Position numbers and translations under genes: made by a program
Source: Siphonodentalium dalli
Lineage: Eukaryota; Mollusca; Scaphopoda; Gadilida; Siphonodentaliidae
Direction: 5' to 3'
NCBI GenBank assembly: GCA_032622095.1
Contig: CP136064.1
Span: 45,216,989 to 45,280,988, forward strand
Length of the DNA stretch: 64,000 nucleotides
Part shown: positions 46,469 to 63,335 of the stretch, one piece after another
How positions within the stretch are numbered: position 1 is the first letter of the stretch
How the letters are laid out: each line of letters opens with the position of its first letter
The notes under the pieces: model-generated
Told to the model about the DNA's origin: nothing
Seen by the model: the letters and a program-made list of their open reading frames with translations, nothing else
Database searches by the model: none

Positions 46469-46507
46469 TTAAAGGCCCACTTAATTTTCGATCACATATA
46501 TAAAATA

Positions 46508-47102
46508 CTAGCAGGTGAACCGACTTCGTCCGGGCTTTGACCTTGAATTGACCATTTTGAAGGTCAAGGTAAGGTCGGAGTCACGATTTGACCCGTCCAA
46601 AACACCCCCTGTCGTCGAAAACCGTCCACCAGTTTTCCCGGCCATAGCTAACAGACAAACAAACAGACAGAAGTCCCAAAATATATATTAGATCATTTGT
46701 GGGTACCCGTTTCAAGGTGAAGGTCACCTCGGGCGGAAATACTGACCCGATGAAAATCTCCCCCATTCCCAGGAACCCCTAAGTACGAACACAGAATCAC
46801 ACAACACGCTCATGTCTGTACACAGACACAACACGCTCATGTCTGGACACACACACGCTCTTTATCAACGACACTGCGGATACGAACGCTCTTTAACTAT
46901 CACGCGATTAACCCATGGACTACCCATTGCTGTGGCGGGGGATTGGAGAATGAGTGATCTGACGTTCCCAGAAGCGGTGCGATGACATTCCATCTGGTAT
47001 TTTACCCTTAGATAGGAAGTTTGGGCTCAATCCGTCCGACAGTTTTCCCGGCCATAGCTAATAGACAAACAAACAAACAGAAGTCCTAAAATATATATTA
47101 GA
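46508..47102 (-). mobile_element. Helitron-like element, hairpin type 2, with doubled 5' end
   Basis: On the minus strand the element ends in a GC-rich hairpin (complement of the CCGACTTCGTCCGGG part), seven bases, then CTAG followed by T. This is the canonical Helitron 3' arrangement. A TC-starting 5' end with TATATATTTT lies at 47102, and a second almost identical 5' end lies at 46692. Both are preceded by the same GGCCATAGCTAA and ACAAACAAACAGAAG stretch. The doubled 5' end suggests two partial insertions or an internal duplication. No Rep/helicase frame is present, so it is non-autonomous. Confidence 0.65.
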
Positions 47103-47772
47103 CTAGCAGTTTAGCCCGCCACCGGCGGCTTGTCCGAAACATGACATTTTTTTTATATTTATTTTATAATTTTTAGCTCCACGCGTTTCAATAAGAAAAA
47201 TTTGTACCCGGTAGCTCCACCCGTTTCCGAGATCTGGACTGCGCAAGTGCGCATGCGCGAAGCTGGCGTCGCACGTGCTCGGCGACCCGATAAAATTGTA
47301 ACCCGGCGCAAGATACATTGACATAGCAAATTTCAAGTCGATAGCTCCACCCGTTTCCGAGATCTCGTCTGCGCATGCGCTGCACGGGCGTCGCACGGGC
47401 TCGGCGACCCGATCAAATTTGTACCCGGCGCAAGTTACATTCACATAGCAAATTTCAAGTCGATAGCTCCACCCGTTTCCGAGATCTCGTCTGCGCATGT
47501 GCTGCACGGGCGTCGCACGGGCTCGGCGACCCGATCAAATTTGTACCCGTCGCAAGATACATTCACATAGCAAATTTCAAGTCGATAGCTCCACCCGTTT
47601 CCGAGATCTCGTCTGCGCATGCGCTGCACGGGCGTCGCACGGGCTCGCCAATACGACAACGACCACCGCCTGGTCAAACTACACACACGTACCAAGTTTC
47701 GTCCCGATCGGTCGAGAATCGTAGATTTGTATGAAGTACAACACACACACAAACATAAATATATAAGAGAGA
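47103..47772 (-). mobile_element. Helitron-like element, hairpin type 1, with 122-bp internal repeats
   Basis: The 3' end on the minus strand is the complement of CTAGCAGTTTAGCCCGCC-ACC-GGCGGC, a perfect short hairpin followed by CTAG. Inside are about four tandem copies of a 122-bp repeat (starts of the matching motif at 47253, 47375, 47497, 47619) carrying GTTTCCGAGATCT and GCGCATGCGC. Next to them are the CCCGATCGGTCGAGAA segment and a CA-rich tract. The 5' end is at 47772 (TC on the minus strand). Long frames here are by-products of the 122-bp period. Confidence 0.7.
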
Positions 47773-47960
47773 TATGTAAATTAGATAGATTGTATCAAAA
47801 TATATAGGAGATATATGTAAATGATCTACACACCATTACTGGTGTTTGTCAAAGTTTAGTGGGGTATATCAATACTCATTCACGATTATATCATTGAGGT
47901 CCGGAGGGTGTGGGCTATCTCTCGAATACACGGAGTTCTCAAAATATATAGAAGAGAAGA
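47773..47960. mobile_element. Helitron remnant between full elements
   Basis: This 188-bp interval separates two full elements. It contains two further sequences resembling the 5' end, ATATATAGGAGA at 47800-47811 and AAATATATAGAAGAGAAGA ending at 47960. No hairpin-plus-CTAG end lies between them. It is probably the debris of one or more truncated copies. Confidence 0.45.
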
Positions 47961-48344
47961 CTAGCCGATGAGCCCGACGTTGTCCGGGCTATTCAAAACC
48001 CAAATTTCAAGTCGATAGCTCCACCCGTTTCCGAGATCTGGTCTGCGCATGCGCGAAGCTGGCGTCGCACGGGCTCGGCGACCCGATACAATTTGTACCC
48101 GGCGCAAGATACATTCACATAGCAAATTTCAAGTCGATAGCTCCACCCGTTTCCGAGATCTTGTCTGCGCATGCGCTGCACGGGCGTCGCACGGGCTCGC
48201 CAATACGACAACGACCACCGCCTGGTCAAACTACACACACGTACCAAGTTTCGTCCCGATCGGTCGAGAAACGTAGATTTGTATAAAGGACAGACAGACA
48301 GCCAGACAAACAGACAGACAGATTATTTCAAAATATATAAGAGA
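47961..48344 (-). mobile_element. Helitron-like element, hairpin type 3
   Basis: The minus-strand 3' end is a strong hairpin (AGCCCGAC-GTT-GTCCGGGCT on the plus strand, one bulged base) six bases from CTAG. Two 122-bp internal repeats, the CCCGATCGGTCGAGAA segment and a GACA-rich microsatellite precede the 5' end at 48344 (TCTCTTATATATTTTG on the minus strand). It abuts the next element directly. Confidence 0.75.
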
Positions 48345-48947
48345 CTAGAAGGTGACCCGACTTCGTCCGGGCTTTGACCATGAATTGTCCATTTTGAAGG
48401 TCAAGGTCAGGTGGGGGTCACAATTTGAACCGTCCAAAACACTGCCCGAACAAAAGTACCCGACAAAGTACCCGTCGAAATCCATCCGGTTTTACCCGAT
48501 TTGACCTCGAATTGATCATTTTGATGCTCAAGATGAGGTCGGGGTCACGATTTGACCCTTCCAAAACACTCAGTAGACAAAAGTAACCCCATGTATAAAA
48601 TTTCGTCAAAATCCCATTAAAATTCGCGATTTGACCTTGAATTGACCAGATTTCAAGGTCAACGTCACGTCGCACGGGCAAATGAATATGCTTATGAGAC
48701 TCCCCATACGAAAGTATCCCCACATACTAAGTTTCATCGAAAACCCGTGATATTCAGGCGTTTGACCTTGAAATGACCCGATTTCAATGTCAAGGTCATG
48801 TCGCACGGGCAAATTAATAGGCCTATGTCACTCCCCGGCCGAAAATACCCCCACATACCAAGTTTCATCGAAATCGACTCGGCCGTTTTCAAGTCCATCG
48901 ATTACAGACACACACACACACACAGATCTTCCAAAATATATAATAGA
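48345..48947 (-). mobile_element. Helitron-like element, hairpin type 2, rich in TGACCTTGA motifs
   Basis: The terminus begins CTAGAAGGTGACCCGACTTC on the plus strand, whose complement makes a hairpin seven bases from CTAG. The interior is four degenerate repeats of about 120 bp containing TTTGACCTTGAATTGACC and TCAAGGTCA, plus CCCCACATACCAAGTTTCAT. A CA microsatellite precedes the 5' end at 48947. There is no coding capacity. Confidence 0.75.
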
Positions 48948-50109
48948 CTAGCAGGTTAGCCCGCCACCGGCGGCTTGTCCGAAACATGACATTTTTTTAA
49001 TATTTGTTTTTAATTTTTAGCTCCACGCGTTTCAATAAGAAAAATTTGTACCCGGTAGCTCCACCCGTTTCCGAGATCTGGTCTGCGCATGCGCGAAGCT
49101 GGCGTCGCACGGACTCGGCGACCCGATAAAATTTGTACCCGGCGCAAGATACATTCACATAGCAAATTTCAAGTCGATAGCTCCACCCGTTTCCGAGATC
49201 TCGTCTGCGCATGCGCTGCACGGGCGTCGCATGGACTCGGCGACCCGATAAAATTTGTACCCGGTGCAAGATACATTCACATAGCAAATTTCAGGTCGAT
49301 AGCTCCACCCGTTTCCGAGATCTGCCTTTCTGCATAATATTTCGAGCGATAACATTGCATTGAAATGTCAGACTCCCATCGTGAACCTCAACACGAAGTA
49401 AACACGTGTTTCGAGCGATAACATTGCATTGAAATGACTCCCATCGTGAACCTCAAGACGACGTAAAACACGTGTTGCGTTCTAGGAAATGCACTCAATG
49501 CAGATGCTAATAACGTTGACTTCGTATATATATATATAATGACGTTATTAACCTCGGCCGTGCCGTTTGAGCTGATTTTTATGACTGGGAGTGGAGTACG
49601 GGTGCTCGGAGCTTCTGGAAAACGCGTGGACGACATCGTACGTGGTATTTTACCTTTAGATAGGAAGTTTGAGCTCAATCTGTCCAGCCGTTCCCGTCCT
49701 AATGTACTATTTCGAGCGATAACAATTGTCAGACTCCCATCGTGAACCTCAACACGAAGTAAACACGTGTTTCGAGCGATAACATTGCATTGAAGTCAGA
49801 CTCCCATCGTGGACCCCCAAGACGACGTAAACACGTGTTTGTTCCGGTATAACTTTGGAGACTCTGACTTCATATATATATATAATGACGTTATTAACCC
49901 CGGCCGTGCCGTTTGAGCTGATTTCGATGACTGGGAGTGGATAAAGGGTGCTCAGAGCTTCTCGAAAACACATCTACTGCGGTGTCGGTGGGATTTTACA
50001 CTTACATACGAAATTTGATCTCAATCTGTACACGCGTTTTGGATTCTATGAAGTACACACACACATATATACACACATATATACGAAGTCTCAAAATATA
50101 TAGTATAGA
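48948..50109 (-). mobile_element. Helitron-like element, hairpin type 1, with internal duplication of about 350 bp
   Basis: The CTAG end at 48948 is followed by the GCCCGCCACCGGCGGC hairpin. The left part has 122-bp repeats as in neighbouring elements. From about 49340 to 50045 a second module occurs twice. Its markers are CGTGTTTCGAGCGATAACAT (49405 and 49766), a TATA run, and GACGTTATTAACC (49541 and 49887). The 5' end is at 50109 after ACATATATACA microsatellite DNA. Confidence 0.7.
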
Positions 50110-50968
50110 CTAGAAGGTGACCCGACTTCGTCCGGGCTTTGACCTTGAATTGACCATTTTGAAAGTCAAGGTCAGGTGGGGTCAAACACCAACACCCCAA
50201 AAATGGTGGAAATCGGCCCAGCGGATACCGGGAAATCGGCCCAGCGGATACCGAGATACCCTATGCATCAAATTTCGTCCGTAAAAATCCGCCAGTTTAA
50301 CTCGATTTGATTTCCACTCAAGTATATACACGCGCCTCATATACACACGCTCATTAATTATCAAGTTTCAACGTAAAGATAAATTACCATCGGTGCCCGA
50401 GATATCGCCAAGACGTCTGAAACAGTCAAATGCATCGGCCGGTTAAGCGTTAACGTGATCTAACGTTATGACCTCTAACGACGTCATAGAAGATATGCAT
50501 TGTTTTTATCCTGATGGAAGATAGTACCACTTCTTCTTGATAATTGAGGCAGATAACTAAAACGCATTATATATCGTTGGAAAGAAGAAACACGAAAGAT
50601 TCTCACAGTGTCATTATTATGACTGGCATTTTATTATTCGCGCTGTTTCGAATCGATTTGTAAGCACCGAACTCAAATGAAAGTCCCGTAACACAGCGTA
50701 AAAACAGATTTGACCTCGGCACGTGAAAAGTTGACCTCGGATCTGAAAATCAATAGGCGTATGTCACCCCCGGCCGAAAATACCCCCACATACCAAGTTT
50801 CATCGAAATCGGGAAGGCCGTTTTCGAGTTTATCGATTACACACACACACATTCCCTCATACACACACACCCTCACACACACACACACACCCTCTCTCAT
50901 ACACACACCCACCCTCCCACACACACACACACACACACACAAACAGATCTTCCAAAATATATAATAGA
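50110..50968 (-). mobile_element. Helitron-like element, hairpin type 2, with CA microsatellite
   Basis: CTAGAAGGTGACCCGACTTC opens the plus-strand copy at 50110. TGACCTTGA lies at 50140 and TCAAGGTCA at 50166. The middle (50350-50700) is not shared with the other copies I compared. An interrupted CA microsatellite runs at 50839-50945 and the 5' end is at 50968. The reading frame seen across the CA tract is low-complexity and not a gene. Confidence 0.7.
50839..50945. repeat. Interrupted CA microsatellite
   Basis: CA dinucleotides dominate, broken by CCCTC and CTCAT interruptions. The tract sits at the usual microsatellite position of the Helitron-like element, close to its 5' end on the minus strand. 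Confidence 0.9.
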
Positions 50969-51477
50969 CTAGCAGGTTAGCCCGCCACTGGCGGCATTCG
51001 TCCCATGGCTTTGTTCGAAAAAGCAATTGCAACAGGTTCCGAGACACTTGTGCTGCATTTGCAGCAAATTTCGGCAATTTTTAATTGAATTTTTGGTTTT
51101 TAAATTTTACCCAATTTTTTTTTGGTTTTTCAAGGAGTTAATTGTGCCATTTTAATTATGTTTTTAAATTTTACCCGATTTTTTTTTTGTTTTTCAATGA
51201 ACCCGTCCATGACACTTCCCGTATTTAGCAAGTTTGAGCTCAATCGGTTCGAGTCTATAAAGGACACACTCATATATATGACACTTCCCGTAGGTAGCAA
51301 GTTTGAGCTCAATCGGCATTCCCTGGAATTTCCCAGCCACCAACGCGGCGTAATTTTGGTACATATATAGAGACCAATTGTCCATCGGCTGTCATGTGTA
51401 GTAAAGATGTCTCATATAAGCCGACATTGCCGTGGGGATGCCCGTTCCTACACGCGTTTTCGATTCTATGAAGTACC

Positions 51478-51528
<51 letters not shown>

Positions 51529-51548
51529 GGGAGTCTCAAATTATATAG
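50969..51548 (-). mobile_element. Helitron-like element, hairpin type 1, broken at its right end
   Basis: A CTAG end at 50969 with a GCCCGCCACTGGCGGC hairpin is followed by T-rich DNA. Two copies of TGACACTTCCCGTA with CAAGTTTGAGCTCAATCGG and a pure TA microsatellite (about 51478-51527) follow. The usual junction with the next element is missing: TATATAGTC runs straight into the body of the following copy, so a deletion removed one element's hairpin end. Confidence 0.6.
51478..51527. repeat. TA microsatellite
   Basis: An uninterrupted run of alternating A and T of about 50 bp lies within the type 1 Helitron-like element. Confidence 0.9.
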
Positions 51549-51912
51549 TCAAAAACCAAATTTCAAGTCGATAGCTCCACCCGTTTCCGAGATCTGGTCC
51601 GCGCATGCGCGAAGCTGGCGTCGCACGGGCTCGGCGACCCGATAAAATTCGTATTCGGGGCAAGATACATTCACATACCAAATTTCAAGTCGATAGCTCC
51701 ACCCGTTTCCGAGATCTCGTCTGCGCATGCACTGCACGGGCGTCGCACGGGCTCGCCAATACGACAACGTCCACCGCCTGGTCAAACTACACACACGTAC
51801 CAAGTTTCGTCCCGATCGGTCGAGAATCGTAGATTTGTATTAATGACAAACATACAAACATACAGACAAACATACAAACAAACAGACAGAGGTCTTCAAA
51901 ATATATATGAGA
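51549..51912 (-). mobile_element. Helitron-like element, type 3, 3' end truncated
   Basis: The body matches the type 3 elements (two 122-bp repeats, CCCGATCGGTCGAGAA, then CATACAAACA microsatellite) and the 5' end is intact at 51912. The hairpin and CTAG end expected near 51548 are absent. Confidence 0.65.
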
Positions 51913-52452
51913 CTAGCCGATGAGCCCGACGTTGTCCGGGCTATTCAAAAACCAAATTTCAAGTCGATAGCTCTACCCAGCGCTATTCAAAAACCAAATT
52001 TCAAGTCGATAGCTCTACCCGTTTCCGAGATCTGGTCTGCGCATGCGCGAAGCTGGCGTCGCACGGGCTCGGCGACCCAATAAAATTTGTATCCGGGGCA
52101 AGTTACATTCACATACTAAATTTCAAGTCGATAGCTCCACCCGTTTCCGAGATCTCGTCTGCGCATGCGCGAAGCTGGCGTCGCACGGGCTCGGCGACCC
52201 GATAAAATTCGTATCCGGGGCAAGATACATTCACATAGCAAATTTCAAGTCGATAGCTCTACCCGTTTCCGAGATCTCGTCTGCGCATGCGCGAAGCGGG
52301 CGCCGCACGGGCTCGCCAATACGACAACGTCCACCGCCTGGTCAAACTACACACACGTACAAAGTTTCGTCCCGATCGTTCGAGAATCGTAGATTTGTAT
52401 AAATGACAGACAGACAGACATACAGACAGAGGTCTTCAAAATATATATGAGA
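51913..52452 (-). mobile_element. Helitron-like element, type 3, three 122-bp repeats
   Basis: CTAGCCGATGAGCCCGACGT starts the copy. A short segment next to the hairpin (ATTCAAAAACCAAATTTCAAG) is duplicated. Three 122-bp repeats follow (motif starts at 52043, 52165 and a variant near 52287), then a GACA microsatellite and the 5' end at 52452. The element abuts its neighbours on both sides. Confidence 0.75.
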
Positions 52453-53080
52453 CTAGCCGATGAGCCCGACGTTGTCCGGGCTATTCAAAAACCAAATTTC
52501 AAGTCGATAGCTCTACCCATTTCCTAGATCTGGTCTGCGCATGCGCGAAGCTGGCGTCGCACGGGCTCGGCGACCCGATAAAATTCGTATCCGGGGCAAG
52601 ATACATTCACATACCAAATTTCAAGTCGATAGCTCCACCCGTTTCCGAGATCTCGTCTGCGCATGCGCGAAGCTGGCGTCGCACGGGCTCGGTGACCCGA
52701 TAAAATTCGTATCCAGGGCAAGATACATTCACATAGCTAATTTCAAGTTGATAGCTCCACCCGTTTCCGAGATCTCGTCTGCGCATGCGCGAAGCTGGCG
52801 TCGCACGGGCTCAGCGACCCGATAAAATTCGTATCCGGGGCAAGATACATTCACATAGCAAATTTCAAGTCGATAGCTCCAGCCGTTTCCGAGATCTCGT
52901 CTGCGCATGCGCGAATCGGGTGCCACACGGGCTCGCCAATACGACAACGACGACCGCCTTGTCAAACTACACATACGTACCAAGTTTCGTCCCGATCGGT
53001 CGAGAATCGTAGATTTGTATAAATGACAGACAGACAGACAGACAGACATACAGACAGAGGTCTTCAAAATATATATGAGA
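52453..53080 (-). mobile_element. Helitron-like element, type 3, four 122-bp repeats
   Basis: This is the last member of the array. It has the type 3 hairpin end at 52453 and 122-bp repeats starting at 52541, 52663 and 52785 with a divergent fourth. A (GACA)n tract precedes the 5' end at 53080, which is followed by T. Together with the A at 46507, this makes the outer junctions of the array A and T, as expected for Helitron insertion between A and T. Confidence 0.75.
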
Positions 53081-53443
53081 TATGCCATATTCTATACCAT
53101 TTGAAAGAGGAAGCTCCAAAACATTGTATTATCAACTTACCCGGTGTCATAAACTGTGAACATTTTGTTTTTTTGCTGAGTTTCCAACGTGTTATTGTCG
53201 TCTAGATTGTAGTAAAAAGTGTGTTATTTCAATGAAGGGGGGATAACTCTTAAATATGCAAATTTTTCTGTAATTTTCGGCTGTTTCTATTTCTCTATGG
53301 GCATCTTCTGAGACACAGATGTTTCAAATGGTGATGAATTATAGTATTTTAATCATATTTTATGGTATAAATTGTTATTAAAATCGTATATCTAGTCACT
53401 ATAAAAAAATAATCGGTGACACGAAAATTAAGTGGGCCTTTAA

Positions 53444-54280: not shown

Positions 54281-55196
54281 AAGAGGTCACCCCGAAGATC
54301 CATATGAAGTTTGGTGATGATCGGATGAGGGATGTGGTCTGTAGGGTGCGCCAAAGGATTTAGTCATACAAAGAGCAATTCCAAGATGGCTGCTGGCGGC
54401 CATGTTTTTTAACGAATTTCGGTCAAAATATGCTCCCATCTAGAGGTCATTCCGAAGATCCATATGAAGTTTGGTGATGATCGGTTTAGGGATGTGGTAT
54501 GTAGGGTGCGCCAAAGGATTTAGTCATACACAGAATACAATTCCAATATGGCCGCTGTCGGCCATGTTATTGAACTAAGTGCGGCCAAAATAGGAGGCTC
54601 CCATCTAGAGGTCACCCCGTAAGTCTGTATGAAGTTTGCTGATCATCAAATGAGGGATATGGTCTGTAGGGTGTGCCAAACGATTTATTCATGCAAAGAG
54701 TAAAATCCAAGATGACTGCCGGTGGCCATGTTTTTCATCGAAAACTGTTCAACTTTGATAGCTCCCATTTAGAGGTAATTCTAAACATGTCTGTAGATTT
54801 TCAAATCAATTATCCAATAAATGCGGGCTGCGGGGTGTGTCGATAGATTCAAATTTGAAATCAATGATGGCCGCTGGCGGCCATGTTTTTGAACGAATTT
54901 CGGCCAAAATAGGAGGCACCCATTTAAGATCACCCCAAAGATCCATATGAAGTTCGGTGATCAAAAATGGGCGATGTGGTCTATGGGGTATGCCAAAGAA
55001 TTTAGTCATGCAGAGAGTAAAATACAAGATGCCTGCTGAAGTTACATTTGAAGTTTGGTGACGATCTGATGAGGGATACAGCCTGTAGGACGTGCCGAAA
55101 TAAAATGTTGACGCTTATACGTACGCACACACAGACGACGGACGCCAACCCATGGCAATTGCTCAAACTTCACCACGTTGCCTAGTTGAGCTAAAA
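54281..55196. mobile_element. Tandem element, five degenerate copies of about 160 bp, with hairpin end
   Basis: Copies begin near 54282, 54442, 54607, 54770 and 54925. Each carries forms of AGAGGTCACCCCGAAGATCC, GAAGTTTGGTGATGATCGG, GTCTGTAGGGTGCGCCAAA and GGCGGCCATGTTTTT. The right end has ACGCACACACAGACGACGGA and then GCTCAA...TTGAGC, a small hairpin followed by TAAAAA. Similar tandem modules with a GACG-rich tract and a hairpin ending in AGCTAAAAA are, to my knowledge, common in mollusc and other marine invertebrate genomes as non-autonomous transposons. The exact class is not determined here. Confidence 0.65.
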
Positions 55197-56258: not shown

Positions 56259-56588
56259 ACATAATATCTTTATAAATTTCCATAACAAAGTAACAAAACA
56301 CAAAAACTAAAAAGGTCTCTAAAAAGGACTACCACACACATTTTGGCACTAAGACAGTGACTATTAATTATGATTAACCGTGCGCGCTGTGTCAGTGACC
56401 GGTTACCCACTCAGGCATAGCTGATATTCTCAATAGCAATAAAGCTGCTCAATAGGTTGTGTGACGAGAAGGAAATTGAATGCAACCTGGACACAATACA
56501 ATGACTTCAGTGTAGCAATACAATGTTCGATGGTATATAAATATTAGAACGTCAGTTTGTCTATAAATGTTCGATATAATATAATGAT
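56259..56588. other. Non-coding stretch, nothing recognised
   Basis: No repeat, RNA gene or exon is visible between the 24-bp tandem repeat and the foldback element. Confidence 0.5.
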
Positions 56589-56723
56589 TAGAGCATATCT
56601 TGTCGTTGACTACGCGAATGTAGTGGCCAGTGTGAATGGTGTAGTTCACTCGCCTTCGGCCCATGAACTACGCCCATCCCACTGGCCACTACAGTCGCGT
56701 AGTCAACTCCAAGCCATGCTCTA
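56589..56723. mobile_element. Foldback element (135-bp hairpin)
   Basis: The two halves are inverted copies. AGAGCAT at 56590 pairs with ATGCTCT at 56716. A 28-bp arm starting GTTGACTACGCGA near 56605 pairs with its reverse complement near 56681-56708 with one mismatch, and GTAGTTCA pairs with TGAACTAC near the loop CTCGCCTTCGGCC. A possible 3-bp target duplication ATT flanks it (56587-56589 and 56723-56725). This fits a small MITE or foldback transposon. The reading frame across it is a by-product. Confidence 0.75.
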
Positions 56724-56748
56724 TTCATATACTAAGCTTTAAAATAAA

Positions 56749-57258: not shown

Positions 57259-57343
57259 GCATATGATGAAAAATTGGCCGCTGTTGCGCAAAAATGGGCA
57301 TTGCAATGTGTTATGGGACACGATGCCGTGAAAAGCGTACCAG
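57259..57343 (+). CDS. CAP gene exon a (cavity His region)
   Basis: 85 bp coding for 28 residues plus one base, from AYDEKLAAVAQKW to GHDAVKSVP. It is bounded by TTACAG and GTAAGC. The sequence matches the second helix of CAP domains, where a Cys and the GHD/GHS histidine are conserved. The exon starts in phase 0, so an earlier exon must supply the N-terminal helix. Confidence 0.9.
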
Positions 57344-60300
57344 GTAAGCATTGTGTAGCTATCGTGGACGATTCACTTATAGATAAGCCTATTTCGAATT
57401 GACATCCATGATATTGTCAGTTCTCCACAAGCACCAGTTCTTGTTGCACCTCGTTGGAGTACTACTTTATTACATGCTCATCATTGGAGCATTCCACACA
57501 TATTGAACAGTGGGAGACGCTTATACGTTGTTAGGAGACATGGCGTCTGCAGAAATAGTTTAATTAGTTTAACATCTCTAATGATATAATACACCGGAGA
57601 ACATTCTTTTCTCCTTTATTTGTGAAAATTATGACAAGTGTCACGTAAAATAAAAACACTTATTGATGAATTTCCAATATCATGGCTAAAATAGAAAGGT
57701 CAGCAATTTATGATTTGACAAAAAAAAAGTTGTTTGAATATATAGGCATTTTAACACTCGAAGTATGCGCTGATATCAACATCAGGGTGAACACAGAATT
57801 TTCATTGCAGAAAGCGACCGGCTCTGTCGCTAATTGGTAGAAAATATCTGCTAATAATTATTTGATTGACAGCTGTGGAAAGGTATATTCCACACTTCTT
57901 TGAACGTGGAACATGAGGCCCAATCACATATATTGGCACAGAAGCTCAAAAATACATATAGGACGTCGTCTGACCAATATGTCCACGTGGTTGCCTTGAA
58001 GCGCTTAACGCGTGGTGCTTCTCGTTACAATACATAACTAGAAATAAGATATCTCGTCGCTTTAATTATCATAATTAATATGGTCATACGTAAAACACAA
58101 TTAAAGCACCTTTACAGCTAGTGTATGCCCGTCGCTGTTTCTGTTCAAAGATTTCTCATAAAGAATCAAGTGTAATCAAACTGCCGCTATCGTGACATTG
58201 CTTGCTACCTTGGAAAATGACAGCTAATGTCTGCTAAATCTAGATCATGTGACTGCACACGCTTGCGCCACCCCTCCGAGACTTGGACCAATGACCAATG
58301 TTAGAGACAGTATTGCTTCACTTATACATGCTATCAAAAGCTTGTTATTCGATAATAAATTGGAGTGAATTAAATTAACTGAATGTTCCGTGGTACAGTA
58401 GTCGAAGTATGTCTGTTTCTTATGAAGTGATACGCAGTTGTCTGGAGACGACATATAATGTTGTCTGAATTTTGGCCCGCGAACACCGAAGGAAATTTTT
58501 ACGTCACATGATGTCACCGAGTCTTAACTGTTGCAGTTAGAATGTGCTCATAAATTGGTGACGTAGTGTCCTAACTGTCATTGTAAGTGATAATAGGTCA
58601 ATACCTACACGAAATGTTGGTAAACATGCTTCATATAGGCTGAAAATACTTAATTTCCAAAAGTCAAAGCAATTTTGCAACACTTTGCTATTTTTCGCAC
58701 AGAAGTGAGACAAACGACCTTTGTTTTTATCATATATACCAGGAAACAACTAACACGAAACGCTCTTTATACTCAACCAGGAGATGGCTGTATAAGCTCA
58801 TGGAGCCTGATGTCAAATCATCTTCTCTCTCAGACTTCCCATACTTAAGTACATGTACATCATATTGTAAATTATTGTAAATGTTAGATTTAATTAAGAA
58901 AATACACATACCGGCAGCGTTCAGACATAGCGTAGCGAGGGGACTGAACTCTGTTTTGCAGCATGAGGCTGAAAAATATTCAAAACTTCATCTTCATCTT
59001 ATCTCGCCAAAAACACCTCGTGGATCCTATCTTATTACACGTTTACTATAGAACACGTACGTATTTTATAGTTTTATGTTGTCAGGCAGGGTACATGTAT
59101 CTTTAAAGGGTGAACACGTTGTCTTTTGTGTAGGTTACGGTCTCTTTGTCGGGCAGAACGTCGCTGGTGGTCAGTCGTCTTGGCGGACTGTCGTAGAAGC
59201 GTGGTATAACGAGGTGTCACTCTACAGATACGGCAGAAAGCCGGAATCTTATCTCGGTCGCGGTGGCTTCGGAAATATAGGACACTACACACAGGTGAAT
59301 TATGTTATCCCATTGCATTCTATATAAACCCTTTCTTTACTATATGGATTCTCCCACTAAGTTATAAAATAATACATTGGAATATTGTATCAATCATTTT
59401 GAGGGATGTATAGAAAAAAATAGCGGACGAAAAATAATACAGTGCGAAGTATTCATGTTCATTGGTAGGAAATGTTCAGATAACGTTTGTTGAACTTATT
59501 ATCTCATGGTCTATCTCTTATATAGTTTTAGATAGTTTCCTGGGGGTAATTTAAATAAATATTAAAGACAAATTATGGACTTGTTCGGGTGTGTGAAATT
59601 GATAAGTTAGTACCCATGAGCTATGCTAACCTGGAGAATGTAGCATTCTACTAACATCGCCGAAATTTTTTACTTCTCGATTCGGGACGCAACTATCGTC
59701 GATAAACCAACACAAATGATTTCGCCATTCAGAGTCATTGTATTTAATTATTATATAAGAATGACGGTCTGTGCTGTCAATTTGGATTAATATTGGTAAC
59801 AAATAACTACTTTGAGCAAGATTATTCTCAATGTCTTGTTTGATCACCCTACCGGAGTGTTTCACATCACTTTAATCGAAGACCCCCGTCCCGAAACGCT
59901 TCTATCGATTAATATTGATTTCATTTCGAATTTTCTGGTGTAAAAGTAATACATACAAAACTTTTAGGACATTTTACGGCTCGGGGAAACGTTCGGAGCC
60001 TAGCAAGCGTGAGAACTCTATCTCTATCTGACATGGCCTGAGGGTTTTAAGGCGGTATATTCTAAAAATAGCAACAACAAAATTTCCCAATTTATTATCG
60101 CATTATATAAGTAAAACAATATTAATTGACAGAAGCGTTGGAAATCTACACTAACTGTGGGTATTAGCACAGGTCCCCAGAACAAACATTGACTCCACCC
60201 CATATAAACTATATGGGTTAAGTACTATTGGGGTGAGGTCAATTTTTGTTCTGGGAACCTGTGGGTAATTATAGTGGCAAATTACTCCAATAACTCATGT

Positions 60301-62869
60301 GTTGTCTCCTGGGTGGAACGTTTTGGCTAAATATTATCTAGTGTTTGAAAGAAGTGGCCAGAAAATAAGTTACGGTTATACTCGTCGGGGAAATTCTTTA
60401 AATTATGCAAATGGCGCCCCATAAGGTCATCAGTTTATTGTGCTGGAGTTTAGGCTATCAAAATATGCGTTGAATATTCAACAATATATGTAAGATGAAA
60501 ATAGGGAACGTCGGAAATATAAATTGGGTATGGGTAACACAAATATAATGGCGTTACTTGATGTAGGTTCAGGGACATTGCGACAGAGTGGAGTTTATAC
60601 CACCCAAATTTGCTCAAATATAAATTTAAAATTTCATGCCTGACACATCAGTTTAAAATTTCAGTATGCTGAAAGTGTCCAACCAGTATTTAGCTAGATC
60701 ATGCCATGAAGCGCTACTCTGGTTAACGCCCGGGTGTTAGCCAGAGTAGAGATTCATGGTATGATTTAGTATTTAGTGTGAATTTTGTGCTCAGACCAAA
60801 CGTCGACTATTTCAAATTTAATAGTTATGTGTATATGATCACGTTATTCGTAACATGTGATATTTATGGACGTCAGTATACCATAATCAATTCTTACAGA
60901 TCGTTTGCAATCAAACAGCAAGAATTGGCTGCGGTGCTGCCTATTGTGAGAAAAGCGCATACAAGCGGTTCTATGTCTGCAACTACTTAACTGGGTATGT
61001 ACAGTTCACATCGTATATTTTTTGAACGCCACCATGACGTGGAGATCGCGTAGCGCTGCGTTTCAAGCCAGCAATTGTGCTCGCTTTTGTTACATCCTGC
61101 TCCGGTCCACGGGTTCTAAATCGGGTAATTCTTTAAAGGTATTCAATCCTAAATTACTGTTTCTTTGTCTTCGGGGGTAAAAAATATTTAATTCGAGTTG
61201 AGGAACCCACCCATCAAAGCTCAGAGTGATCAGATATCGATGTTTGAAGTTTGTTATTTCTCCAGATGAATAATAGTATGTGGCCCAGAAACACGTGGTC
61301 AAACTGAGGGTCTCGGACAAATTTGCGGATGAAGATGGATAACTCAAAAATCAAGTGGTGATACAGTCAAATTTCGTGATACTTTATAGTGATAATACGG
61401 CCATATTTTGTTGAACAAAATGGTGATAAATAACAAGTTTTGGGAAAGCATTATTTTGTTGCAATAAATCGATTCTGATAACAAACGCGTATTTTGAAGA
61501 AATGTTGTTGTTGTTGTTGTTGTTGTACCTTGATGGTATGGGGAGCGTCTGATCGGATTGAGTACCTTTAAATGTGTTATACCAGTCTCCATCATGAAAC
61601 AATATAGAGCGTTCATGTTTAGTCTTTGTCTTTGTCTAAGGTAAATATAAAGAGCGTTTTCATCACTTCTGTGCTAAAATGTTGAACTGGGAAATTGTCA
61701 TGAATAACACGTTTTATAAGAGTATGTGAAGCATGTAGGCCGATTGTTTGCGTGTTAACCGACCTATGTTATCCCTCCTTTCAAAGTACGTAGTCCCAAT
61801 TCGGAGGTGTAACCATTTCTATACTAAATAATCATTGACGAGTAGTTTTCCTTTATTGAAGTTATTATCTTAACATTTCCCACCAATGAATAGGATTCAT
61901 TTTCCACTTTCTGCTGTATGTCGTGTGCTCGGATTTCCAGATGAATAATATATCATTTCAATGTATACATTTATAAGTGAATAGGAGAATCAATTCGGTG
62001 GTTAAATGGTTAAATGAGACATGTTCGTTTATATTAACCCTTTACCCAACAGAAGGGCCCTGTGCCAATGCATTCTCTTATATATGCGAGTCGACCATAG
62101 GTCGCCTCGCATATATAAGACAATGCATTGGCTTAACACATTAAAAATTATAAAATTGTTAAAGAATGTAAGAAAAAATGGTAAAAAGTGTTAAAAAAAG
62201 ATTTTGTTTAGGCCAATGCATTCTCTTATATATGCGAGGCGATCTATGGTCGACTCGCATATATAAGAGAATGCATTGGCACAGGGCATAACTGTAACTA
62301 TCACAATGTGGTCAAGGAGCCGGTTCCAATGATATCCATATTTGTATGGTTCTATTGAGACAGACCGAAGATATTTTAGGCTGTTGAAGCTTTATTTGAC
62401 CGGTTTTGGCCGTTTTGTTGGGTAAAGGGTTAACGTCTGTAAAGTGCTACTCAAGCTCCATATAGAGTTCATATCAGCCCCTACGCAGGACTTACCACTG
62501 CCCACACCGACACGTAATGTGAAGAAATGTCACATCTATTTATTTATTTGTAGGTTACTATTCATTCTGCATTATTCTGAGAAACTGAACTGTCCATATT
62601 CATTTGAAAAGTGTCTAGATCAAGCCAGAATGAGTTGTACGTGTAACTGACAAAACACTTCAATAAAAAATGTTATATTTAATTAAGAAAATACACATGC
62701 CGGCAGCGGTCAGACATAGCGTAGCGAGGGGACTGAACTATTGAGTGGTAGTTTGTGTAATATTGCATCATTCTCGCGTTCGATTTCAGGCAAAGTAACC
62801 CTGCTCATCCGTATACTGCGGGGCCCACGTGCTCTTTGTGTCCCAACTCATGCAAAGAGGGAGTCTGTG
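57259..62869 (+). CDS. CAP-superfamily (antigen 5/CRISP-like) secreted protein, partial, four exons
   Basis: Exons 57259-57343, 59134-59294, 60900-60994 and 62790-62869 join in phase (introns of phase 1, 0 and 2) to about 140 residues of a CAP (SCP/TAPS) domain plus the start of a Cys-rich hinge. Motifs in order are WALQCVMGHD (first cavity His), VGQNVAGG, VVEAWYNEV (Glu), IGHYTQIV (second His), RIGCG, FYVCNYL and CSLCPNSCKEGVC. All splice sites are GT-AG. CAP proteins are usually secreted and disulfide-bonded, with varied roles from immune defence to lipid binding. Nothing here says which. The GEN glutamate of many relatives is Gln (GQN), as in insect antigen 5. The conserved Trp after GHYTQ-V is Cys, leaving an extra cysteine. 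The signal peptide, first helix and the C-terminus after the hinge are not seen, so the gene extends beyond these exons. Confidence 0.9.
58879..58950 (+). repeat. 72-bp dispersed repeat, copy 1 (intron)
   Basis: It runs from AAATGTTAGATTTAATTAAG to GTAGCGAGGGGACTGAACT and matches 62668-62739 in the same orientation with three differences. It lies in the intron between exons a and b. Confidence 0.9.
59134..59294 (+). CDS. CAP gene exon b (GQN to GHYTQ)
   Basis: 161 bp that complete a Gly codon and add 53 residues. They include VGQNVAGG, SSWRTVVEAWYNEV and GNIGHYTQ. Acceptor GTGTAG and donor GTGAAT bound it. It holds the acidic residue of AWYNE and the second cavity histidine. It ends exactly at Gln of GHYTQ, in phase 0. 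Confidence 0.95.
60169..60262. mobile_element. Foldback repeat with ACAGGT ends (intron)
   Basis: ACAGGTCCCCAGAACAAA at the left pairs with TTTGTTCTGGGAACCTGT at the right with one mismatch, and TTGACTCCACCCC pairs with GGGGTGAGGTCAA inside. The whole can fold into one hairpin of about 94 bp. This is probably a small MITE. Confidence 0.75.
60698..60765. mobile_element. Foldback repeat (intron)
   Basis: ATCATGCCATGAA pairs with TTCATGGTATGAT (one mismatch), and CTACTCTGG pairs with CCAGAGTAG around a GCCCGGGTGTTAG centre. This gives a 68-bp imperfect palindrome just upstream of exon c. Confidence 0.75.
60900..60994 (+). CDS. CAP gene exon c (RIGCG and CNY region)
   Basis: 95 bp coding for 31 residues plus two bases: IVCNQTARIGCGAAYC, then KRFYVCNYLT. 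Acceptor TTACAG and donor GTATGT bound it. RIGCG and VCNY are CAP hallmarks. Position three is Cys where family members nearly always have Trp. Confidence 0.92.
61503..61526. repeat. TTG trinucleotide microsatellite
   Basis: Eight consecutive TTG/TGT triplets lie in the intron between exons c and d. Confidence 0.9.
62038..62429. mobile_element. piggyBac-like MITE with paired palindromes (intron)
   Basis: CCCTTTACCCAAC at 62038-62050 is mirrored exactly by GTTGGGTAAAGGG at 62417-62429. TTAA lies directly outside both (62034-62037, 62430-62433). TTAA duplication with a CCC start is typical of piggyBac. Inside are two 69-bp palindromes (62064-62132 and 62212-62280) with arms GCCAATGCATTCTCTTATAT and beyond. 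They are also inverted copies of each other together with GCCCTGT/ACAGGGC. No transposase frame is present. Confidence 0.85.
62668..62739 (+). repeat. 72-bp dispersed repeat, copy 2 (intron)
   Basis: Same orientation as the copy at 58879. The three differences are T for G in the TTATATTT stretch, G for A in ACATGCC, and G for T in GCGGTC. It lies 50 bp upstream of exon d. Confidence 0.9.
62790..62869 (+). CDS. CAP gene exon d (Cys-rich hinge)
   Basis: 80 bp completing a Gly codon and adding 26 residues: QSNPAHPYTAGPTCSLCP, then NSCKEGVC. The spacing C-x2-C-x3-C-x4-C is that of the hinge after a CAP domain. Acceptor ATTTCAG and donor GTAAGC bound it. The donor shows that at least one more exon follows, but I could not identify it before 64000. 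Confidence 0.9.
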
Positions 62870-63335
62870 GTAAGCATATACAGTAATTCACCCCTGGTTG
62901 AGTGGTCCTGCTAATATACTATGATGTCGGTGGTCCTGCTCAACTGATATGATGCTGGTTGGACAAACTGGTGCTGTTAAGAAAAAGTACCGTTATTCTA
63001 TCTAAAATTGTCATTCTCGAGTGGTGATATGCTAATCTGAACGAATCGAGTAAAAGCCATTGTGTGTCTAAAACATTCAGAAACATATATGTTATATACT
63101 ATTTAATAATGGGTGTGTTGGTTGTTAGAAACCGACTATAATCAAGATGGTTGTTTCTGTCGTTTGAAAGCACCAGCGCAGCCATTTTGAAATATTTAAA
63201 AGTATATCGGCGCTTAAATGTTTGAATGAATTAATGCTTTAATGAACTCAATCGTGAGTTAACACGCGTTAGAGTTGACAAACATATTTATACTATTTAC
63301 ATATAATAATGCTGTATGGTCACCAGCGTATATAT
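62870..63335. other. Probable intron of the CAP gene, no exon recognised
   Basis: It begins with the exon d donor. A Cys-rich reading after a TTAG at about 63130 was considered as an exon but has no donor in range. Otherwise nothing is seen. Confidence 0.5.

What the first reader, a model, noticed from the sequence alone, without database searches (positions are those of the whole stretch)
46508..53080. Head-to-tail array of about ten Helitron-like elements
Repeated junctions read, on the minus strand, hairpin, six or seven bases, CTAG, then directly TC with TATATATTTT. So the 3' end of one element touches the 5' start of the next. Outer flanks are A and T. Three different hairpin types share one kind of 5' end. 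Tandem Helitrons are known from other genomes, but a mixed-family chain of this length is unusual and may record repeated insertion at the same T or rolling-circle read-through.
Basis: partly seen in the sequence, partly recalled or inferred. Interest (0 to 1): 0.7.

Follow-up and report, generated by a model that had tools for sequence, protein, structure and literature searches.

The report
Nine Helitrons stacked head to tail
A chain of nine or ten small jumping genes from three families sits end to end in one spot of an animal-like genome, probably because each newcomer landed exactly at the edge of one already there; this is a known behaviour of Helitrons, seen here in an unusually long and mixed chain.

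Summary
On the minus strand, 53080 to 46508 contains nine 3' ends (CTAG; 8 of 9 with a detectable GC stem) and eight exact CTAG|TC junctions. Seven fit one pattern that 100 shuffles of the window never gave. There are nine transposition units, or ten if the damaged E3/E4 boundary was once a junction. Outer flanks are A and T, inside what looks like a 402-bp TTAA element with perfect 22-bp inverted ends. One correction: the three hairpin types do not share one 5' end beyond the TC...TATATATTTT core. 5' and 3' ends co-vary (Mantel p 0.00045), so these are three end-defined families with mosaic bodies. The ends fit canonical non-autonomous Helitrons, not Helentrons. Serial independent insertion explains the chain best, most likely at A|TC (host A plus the existing element's first T). 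A concatemer of one unit does not fit. The same junction between two unlike Helitrons is published for maize (PMC2267711), and a triple for Metarhizium (PMC5148889). Length and mixture are unusual; the principle is known. No genome was held, so empty sites, solo copies, growth direction and the Rep/Hel partner could not be tested.

The parts
46469..46507 (.). Short end of a putative TTAA-type MITE that hosts the array (22-bp terminal inverted repeat 46469-46490)
   Evidence: Perfect 22-bp inverted match to 53422-53443, E 1.1e-5; 39 + 363 = 402 bp
53081..53443 (.). Long part of the same putative MITE, inverted repeat 53422-53443
52453..53080 (-). E1, family A (hairpin H1), 122-bp tandem-repeat core, 628 bp
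51913..52452 (-). E2, family A (H1), 122-bp repeat core, 540 bp
   Evidence: exact CTAG|TC junction with E1
51549..51912 (-). E3, family A 5' part; its last part with hairpin and CTAG is missing
   Evidence: exact junction with E2; 3' end absent
50969..51548 (-). E4, family B (H3), 5' end damaged (TC not intact)
   Evidence: 5' and 3' matches to E6; start context
50110..50968 (-). E5, family C (H2), 859 bp
   Evidence: exact junction with E4
48948..50109 (-). E6, family B ends (H3) with a family-A repeat block inside, 1162 bp
   Evidence: exact junction with E5; last ~380 bp 93.5% identical to E9
48345..48947 (-). E7, family C (H2), 603 bp
   Evidence: exact junction with E6
47961..48344 (-). 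E8, family A (H1), 384 bp
   Evidence: exact junction with E7
47103..47960 (-). E9, family B outer ends (H3) around a family-A body with extra 5' ends at 47811 and 47772, each preceded by A (probably one short local duplication); 858 bp
   Evidence: CTAG|TC junction with E8; body match to E1 and E8
46693..47102 (-). E10, family C 5' part without its own 3' end
   Evidence: exact junction with E9; first 74 bp 92% identical to E11
46508..46692 (-). E11, family C (H2, stem base changed), 185 bp; preceded by A, followed by the host T

Best explanation
The stretch is a chain of non-autonomous canonical Helitrons of three end-defined families (A, B, C), built by repeated independent insertion at one target. 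The first element landed between A and T inside a TTAA-type MITE. Its 5' TC then formed a new A|T target with the host A. Each later element inserted at that A|T, in front of the previous one, so every inner junction reads CTAG|TC with no spare base and the outer flanks stay A and T. Some units were already mosaics before arrival: one Helitron had inserted into another and the composite moved with one outer 5' end and one 3' end (E9, E10+E11, perhaps E3+E4). Shown: ends, junctions, flanks, family structure, mosaicism. Inferred: order and side of insertion, movement of composites, and rolling-circle transposition by a Rep/Hel protein supplied in trans.
For: Eight exact CTAG|TC junctions; seven tested by shuffles, 0 expected. 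Stems at 8 of 9 ends, 0 of 48 and 0 of 30 controls. 5' and 3' ends co-vary across nine units, Mantel r 0.60, p 0.00045 (E9 by its outermost 5' end, E10 5' paired with E11 3', E4 with its damaged 5' end, E3 left out). Neighbours are unlike, and no two of the three B|C pairs match on both sides of the junction within 400 bp. All four intact 5' ends that do not abut a CTAG abut A (E1, E9b, E9c, E11); E9b and E9c look like one local duplication, so three independent cases, and damaged E4 also follows an A. No spare base at eight junctions argues against a target-site duplication. A perfect 22-bp TTAA inverted repeat brackets the array. The A|TC route to CTAG|TC pairs is stated for maize in PMC2267711 (passages); the self-insertion model for several 5' ends with one 3' end in PMC5148889 (passages).
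Against: Growth direction is not shown. In the maize pair three lines carry only the left-hand element and none in the passage seen carries only the right-hand one, which fits growth at G|T on the 3' side more simply; the authors need a clean excision to keep the A|T route. The same passage reports Pritham and Feschotte's argument that independent insertions should leave the host A between CTAG and TC, which holds unless the newcomer uses the existing element's own T. E1, which should be youngest, has the most private differences in a 128-column alignment (6, against 3, 2, 2 and 1 for E2, E3, E8, E9c), although these can predate insertion. Outer flanks read TA...TA, so a TA duplication at this one site is not formally excluded. 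Each B 3' end is followed by a C unit (3 of 3, p 0.008, tested after seeing it), which random serial insertion does not predict. Ends were recognised by TC and CTAG, so their uniformity is partly by construction.
Confidence: 0.62

Rival explanations
1. Serial insertion, but growing at the 3' side: later elements inserted at the G|T formed by CTAG and the host T.
For: Gives the same junctions and flanks. The maize pair fits it more simply, since some lines carry only the left-hand element (PMC2267711 passages). E1, the 5'-most unit, has the most private differences here.
Against: G|T is not the canonical target; the free intact 5' ends here follow A (4 of 4, three independent). The 3'-most stem (E11) is the one that is decayed.
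Confidence: 0.2
2. Preformed multi-unit composites: pairs such as B-C assembled elsewhere, then moved as one by terminator bypass, so the array holds fewer insertion events than units.
For: B is followed by C in 3 of 3 cases (permutation p 0.008, after the fact). E6 and E9 share about 380 bp upstream of their B|C junctions at 93.5%. End bypass is described as confirmed in PMC5148889 (passage).
Against: No two B|C pairs match on both sides: E6|E7 and E9|E10 share the B side but only 63 bp at 73% on the C side; E4|E5 and E6|E7 share the C side but only the last 27 bp on the B side.
Confidence: 0.11
3. Rolling-circle concatemer: one element was copied several times and inserted as a multimer, as proposed for tandem Helitrons in bat and plants.
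For: Perfect CTAG|TC junctions are what a circle or concatemer gives. E1, E2 and E3 are one subfamily in a row; E1 and E2 share an identical last 67 bp and, in a shifted register, 333 bp at 96.1%.
Against: A concatemer repeats one unit. Three families alternate, units run from 384 to 1162 bp, and E1 and E2 are 93.1% identical in register over 476 bp with different repeat numbers. A local origin of E1-E3 stays possible if old.
Confidence: 0.06
4. Chance: an AT-rich, repeat-rich stretch with coincidental CTAG and TATATATTTT.
For: Single CTAG|TC..TATATATTTTG matches occur in large collections (4 in IMG/VR, 26 in GTDB).
Against: 0 of those 30 has a stem by the same test, and shuffles of the window gave none where seven are found.
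Confidence: 0.01

Closest known systems
Two adjacent head-to-tail maize Helitrons at r1 (PMC2267711; passages seen)
   Same: CTAG of one directly followed by TC of the next, a novel G/T junction, different contents, explained by consecutive insertion next to an existing Helitron
   Different: Two elements there; nine or ten here, of three families
Tandem and multi-5'-end Helitrons of Fusarium and Metarhizium (PMC5148889; passages seen)
   Same: Three copies in tandem in Metarhizium acridum, for which the authors leave open insertion into a 5' end twice or rolling-circle replication; several 5' termini with one 3' terminus in Fusarium, explained by self-insertion
   Different: The Fusarium elements are Helitron2-type with asymmetric terminal inverted repeats; here TC...CTAG ends without subterminal inverted repeats
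Tandem Helitrons of plant centromeres (seen as cited in PMC5148889; authorship Xiong et al. 2016 and details recalled) and of the bat Myotis (Pritham and Feschotte, seen as cited in PMC2267711)
   Same: Head-to-tail Helitrons with perfect junctions in the bat; tandem arrays in plants
   Different: Plant centromere copies are described as truncated; as recalled they are amplified copies with many 5' ends to one 3' end. Here most units keep both ends and belong to different families
Tandem-repeat-carrying Helentron/HINE elements of oysters (PMC7492417 and PMC11136912; passages seen)
   Same: Short 4-nt microsatellite (GTCY-like) after the 5' end and a central satellite-like tandem repeat, as in family A here (122-bp repeat)
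   Different: Those have subterminal inverted repeats and T-rich targets; neither was found here

Membership tests
Canonical Helitron (features as given in PMC4067079, passage) | 5' end TC | tested here: met
   9 of 9 unit-starting 5' ends (E1, E2, E3, E5-E10) read TC, E4 is damaged; found with the help of that motif, so partly circular
Canonical Helitron (features as given in PMC4067079, passage) | 3' end CTRR | tested here: met
   9 of 9 recognised 3' ends are CTAG; recognised by CTAG, so partly circular
Canonical Helitron (features as given in PMC4067079, passage) | 16-20 nt palindrome about 11 bp from the 3' end | tested here: met
   Perfect stem-loop of 20 (A), 13 (B) or 16 (C) nt, 10-13 nt from the 3' end, at 8 of 9 ends; E11 fails. 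B is shorter than the definition; energies of B and C ends do not beat shuffles
Canonical Helitron (features as given in PMC4067079, passage) | Insertion between A and T without target-site duplication | tested here: inconclusive
   Outer flanks A and T; 4 of 4 free intact 5' ends preceded by A; no base at 8 junctions. No empty site available; outer flanks also read TA...TA
Canonical Helitron (features as given in PMC4067079, passage) | Autonomous partner with Rep/Helicase and the same ends | not testable with these tools
   No genome held. 0 of 21 stop-to-stop ORFs of 90+ aa overlapping the array has a Rep or helicase match
Helentron / HINE / DINE (Helitron2) | Subterminal inverted repeats | tested here: not met
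   Longest exact inverted match between first 40 and last 90 nt is 4-7 bp in nine units, reached by 69-200 of 200 shuffles
Helentron / HINE / DINE (Helitron2) | T|T insertion in T-rich sequence | tested here: not met
   Flanks A and T
Rolling-circle concatemer of one Helitron | Repeated near-identical units | tested here: not met
   Three families with unlike bodies; E1-E3 alone are one subfamily
TTAA-type MITE for the host element | Terminal inverted repeats with TTAA at both ends | tested here: met
   22-bp perfect inverted repeats beginning TTAA
TTAA-type MITE for the host element | Other uninterrupted genome copies | not testable with these tools
   No genome held; 0 IMG/VR matches to the 22-mer

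The most novel reading that the evidence does not exclude
The shared AT-rich 5' end (TC...TATATATTTT) of several Helitron families, next to a host A, acts as a standing landing site for all of them, so such chains grow only at their 5' edge and are a layer-by-layer record of which families were active in what order. The clustering of subfamilies seen by eye (one A type in E1-E3, another in E6, E8 and E9; one C 5' type in E5 and E7, another in E10 and E11) would then be strata.
Probability: 0.25. Interest if true: 0.5.

Novelty: new member of a known kind. Interest (0 to 1): 0.33.

Why it matters
Whether touching Helitrons come from rolling-circle concatemers or from serial insertion has been argued over the bat and maize cases. 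A long chain of unlike families with exact inner junctions is a clear natural example for serial insertion. If the growth direction were proven, such chains would give relative dates for Helitron bursts. Three families obeying one target rule at one spot also suggests a shared or very similar transposase.

Tried and rejected
Looking for relatives of the array outside the window gave nothing useful. Exact patterns for hairpin H1, hairpin H2, the 122-bp repeat, the MITE end and a degenerate hairpin-plus-junction had 0 IMG/VR matches. The junction pattern had 4 IMG/VR and 26 GTDB matches; 30 of 30 lack a stem and look like chance. The window has no Rfam match at gathering score and no tRNA found by ARAGORN with the bacterial code. 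Of 21 stop-to-stop ORFs of 90 aa or more that overlap the array (list), 21 were scanned against Pfam; none has a Rep or helicase match, and one sub-threshold match (E 0.078, GLOD4_N) is treated as noise.

An age order from private differences did not support the expected order: E1 had the most. Folding energy as proof of hairpins was rejected, since only H1 beats shuffles clearly. A 'first terminator is used' rule for nested units was considered; it fits E10+E11 and perhaps E3+E4, but not E6 and E9, where the inner A 3' end is gone and a B end closes the unit. E3/E4 is equally well explained by one deletion of about 33 bp across a normal junction.

Literature: on tandem, adjacent or composite Helitrons, and on mollusc Helitrons. 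I saw titles and starts of abstracts; lists were capped (20 of 26 papers; 15 of 46; 25 of 214). No mixed-family chain of this length was noticed in these or in the passages seen; the library holds only open-licence papers, so this is not proof of absence.
Full report
Setting. A 31-bp satellite fills 4-44329, the array lies at 46508-53080, and two pieces with weak, sub-threshold matches to the CAP secretory domain lie at 57.3 and 59.1 kb, which together suggest eukaryotic, perhaps animal, DNA. No genome is held and the organism was not identified.

Observation. Read on the minus strand, the array has nine 3' ends with CTAG, and eight of them are followed at once by TC and the TATATATTTT core. 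Seven of the eight match one pattern that 100 shuffles of the whole window never produced; the eighth has a longer spacer. A simple stem test finds a GC stem 6, 7 or 9 nt before CTAG at eight of the nine ends; the ninth (E11) has a changed base in the stem. The same test is negative at 48 of 48 other CTAG examined in the non-satellite rest of the window and at 30 of 30 CTAG|TC matches from other collections. The criteria were set after seeing the ends. By energy as single-stranded DNA two of the three hairpin types do not stand out from shuffles, and with RNA parameters the B ends fold differently.

Units. From 5' to 3': E1 A, E2 A, E3 A (3' end lost), E4 B (5' end damaged), E5 C, E6 B, E7 C, E8 A, E9 B, E10+E11 C. 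This gives nine 3' ends and eight exact junctions; if E3/E4 was once a normal junction that lost about 33 bp, there were ten units. Three extra 5' ends lie inside units (47811, 47772, 46692); the first two look like one short local duplication.

Families. The statement that three hairpin types share one 5' end holds only for the core. Beyond it, the 5' ends fall into the same three groups as the hairpins: distances between 40-nt 5' segments and 36-nt 3' segments of nine units correlate with r 0.60, permutation p 0.00045 (E9 entered by its outermost 5' end, E10 with E11's 3' end, E4 with its damaged end, E3 left out for want of a 3' end). So these are three end-defined families. The bodies are mosaic. 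Family A carries a 122-bp tandem repeat; 18 places in the array carry its core motif. The same repeat block sits inside the B units E6 and E9, whose last ~380 bp are 93.5% identical. In E9 the A body starts with its own TC end preceded by A, as expected if an A element had inserted into a B element. E10 and E11 share the first 74 bp (92%), with a single 3' end. Fusarium Helitrons with several 5' termini and one 3' terminus have been explained by self-insertion followed by transposition from the outer 5' end to the first 3' end (PMC5148889, passages).

Flanks. The base before E1 is A and the base after E11 is T; E9b, E9c and E11 also follow A. The array is bracketed by a perfect 22-bp inverted repeat starting TTAA at both outer ends (46469-46490 and 53422-53443, E 1.1e-5). 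The natural reading is a 402-bp TTAA MITE split by the array 39 bp from one end. No uninterrupted copy was available. The immediate flanks read TA and TA, so this one site cannot exclude a two-base duplication, but the eight inner junctions have no spare base.

Mechanism. Serial insertion explains this best. A Helitron inserts between A and T. Once the first is in place, the host A and the element's own first T form a new A|T. An insertion there yields CTAG|TC and leaves the host A outside. This route, and growth at the 3' side (G|T), were both proposed for a pair of unlike maize Helitrons (PMC2267711, passages). The maize lines favour the 3' side on their face, because some carry only the left-hand element; the A|T route then needs a clean excision. 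Families alternate here, and no two of the three B|C pairs match on both sides of the junction: E6|E7 and E9|E10 share the B side (93.5% over 385 columns) but on the C side only 63 bp at 73%; E4|E5 and E6|E7 share the C side but only 27 bp of the B side. That argues against a concatemer and against recent copies of one B-C block. Direction of growth is inferred only. For 5'-ward growth: free 5' ends follow A, subfamilies cluster along the array, and the 3'-most stem is decayed. Against it: E1, which should be youngest, has the most private differences in one alignment (6 against 1-3), and the maize lines. One feature is unexplained: every B 3' end is followed by a C unit (3 of 3, p 0.008 after the fact).

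Odds. The composite rival went from 0.15 to 0.11 and the concatemer rival from 0.08 to 0.06 so that the sum stays at one.

Classification. TC, CTAG, hairpin and A|T agree with canonical Helitrons as described in PMC4067079 (passage). Subterminal inverted repeats, a Helentron feature, were not found. None of 21 ORFs of 90 aa or more has a Rep or helicase match, so the units look non-autonomous. The architecture of family A, a 4-nt microsatellite and a central satellite-like repeat, resembles oyster HINE elements (PMC7492417, passages), but its ends do not.

Novelty. Tandem Helitrons are reported from bat, Drosophila, rice, maize and fungi (PMC5148889 and PMC5876387, passages). Six searches listed no title or abstract start that announces a chain of this length made of different families, but lists were capped in two and the library is partial. 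I call it a new member of a known kind, with moderate interest.

Noticed in passing
4-44329: A 44-kb array of a 31-bp satellite (about 1415 copies, 95% matches) with strong strand asymmetry (GC skew -0.42 to -0.56 in 2-kb steps).
   Followed up: no
57259-62900: Spaced plus-strand pieces that read by eye like exons of a CAP-domain secretory protein; two pieces tested match Pfam CAP only below its cut-off (E 0.032 and 0.0056), two further pieces were not tested.
   Followed up: partly
62057-62287: Long imperfect palindrome (81% over 237 aligned columns) with inner 69-bp palindromes, perhaps a foldback element; further palindromes at 56584-56728, 60168-60263 and 60694-60769.
   Followed up: no
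58879-58950 and 62668-62739: A 72-bp direct repeat, 96% identical, 3.8 kb apart.
   Followed up: no
54282-55100: Degenerate tandem repeat of roughly 160-bp spacing, about 73-81% alike, next to the array.
   Followed up: no
46508-51548: Every B-type 3' end is directly followed by a C-type unit (3 of 3) although no two pairs match on both sides.
   Followed up: partly
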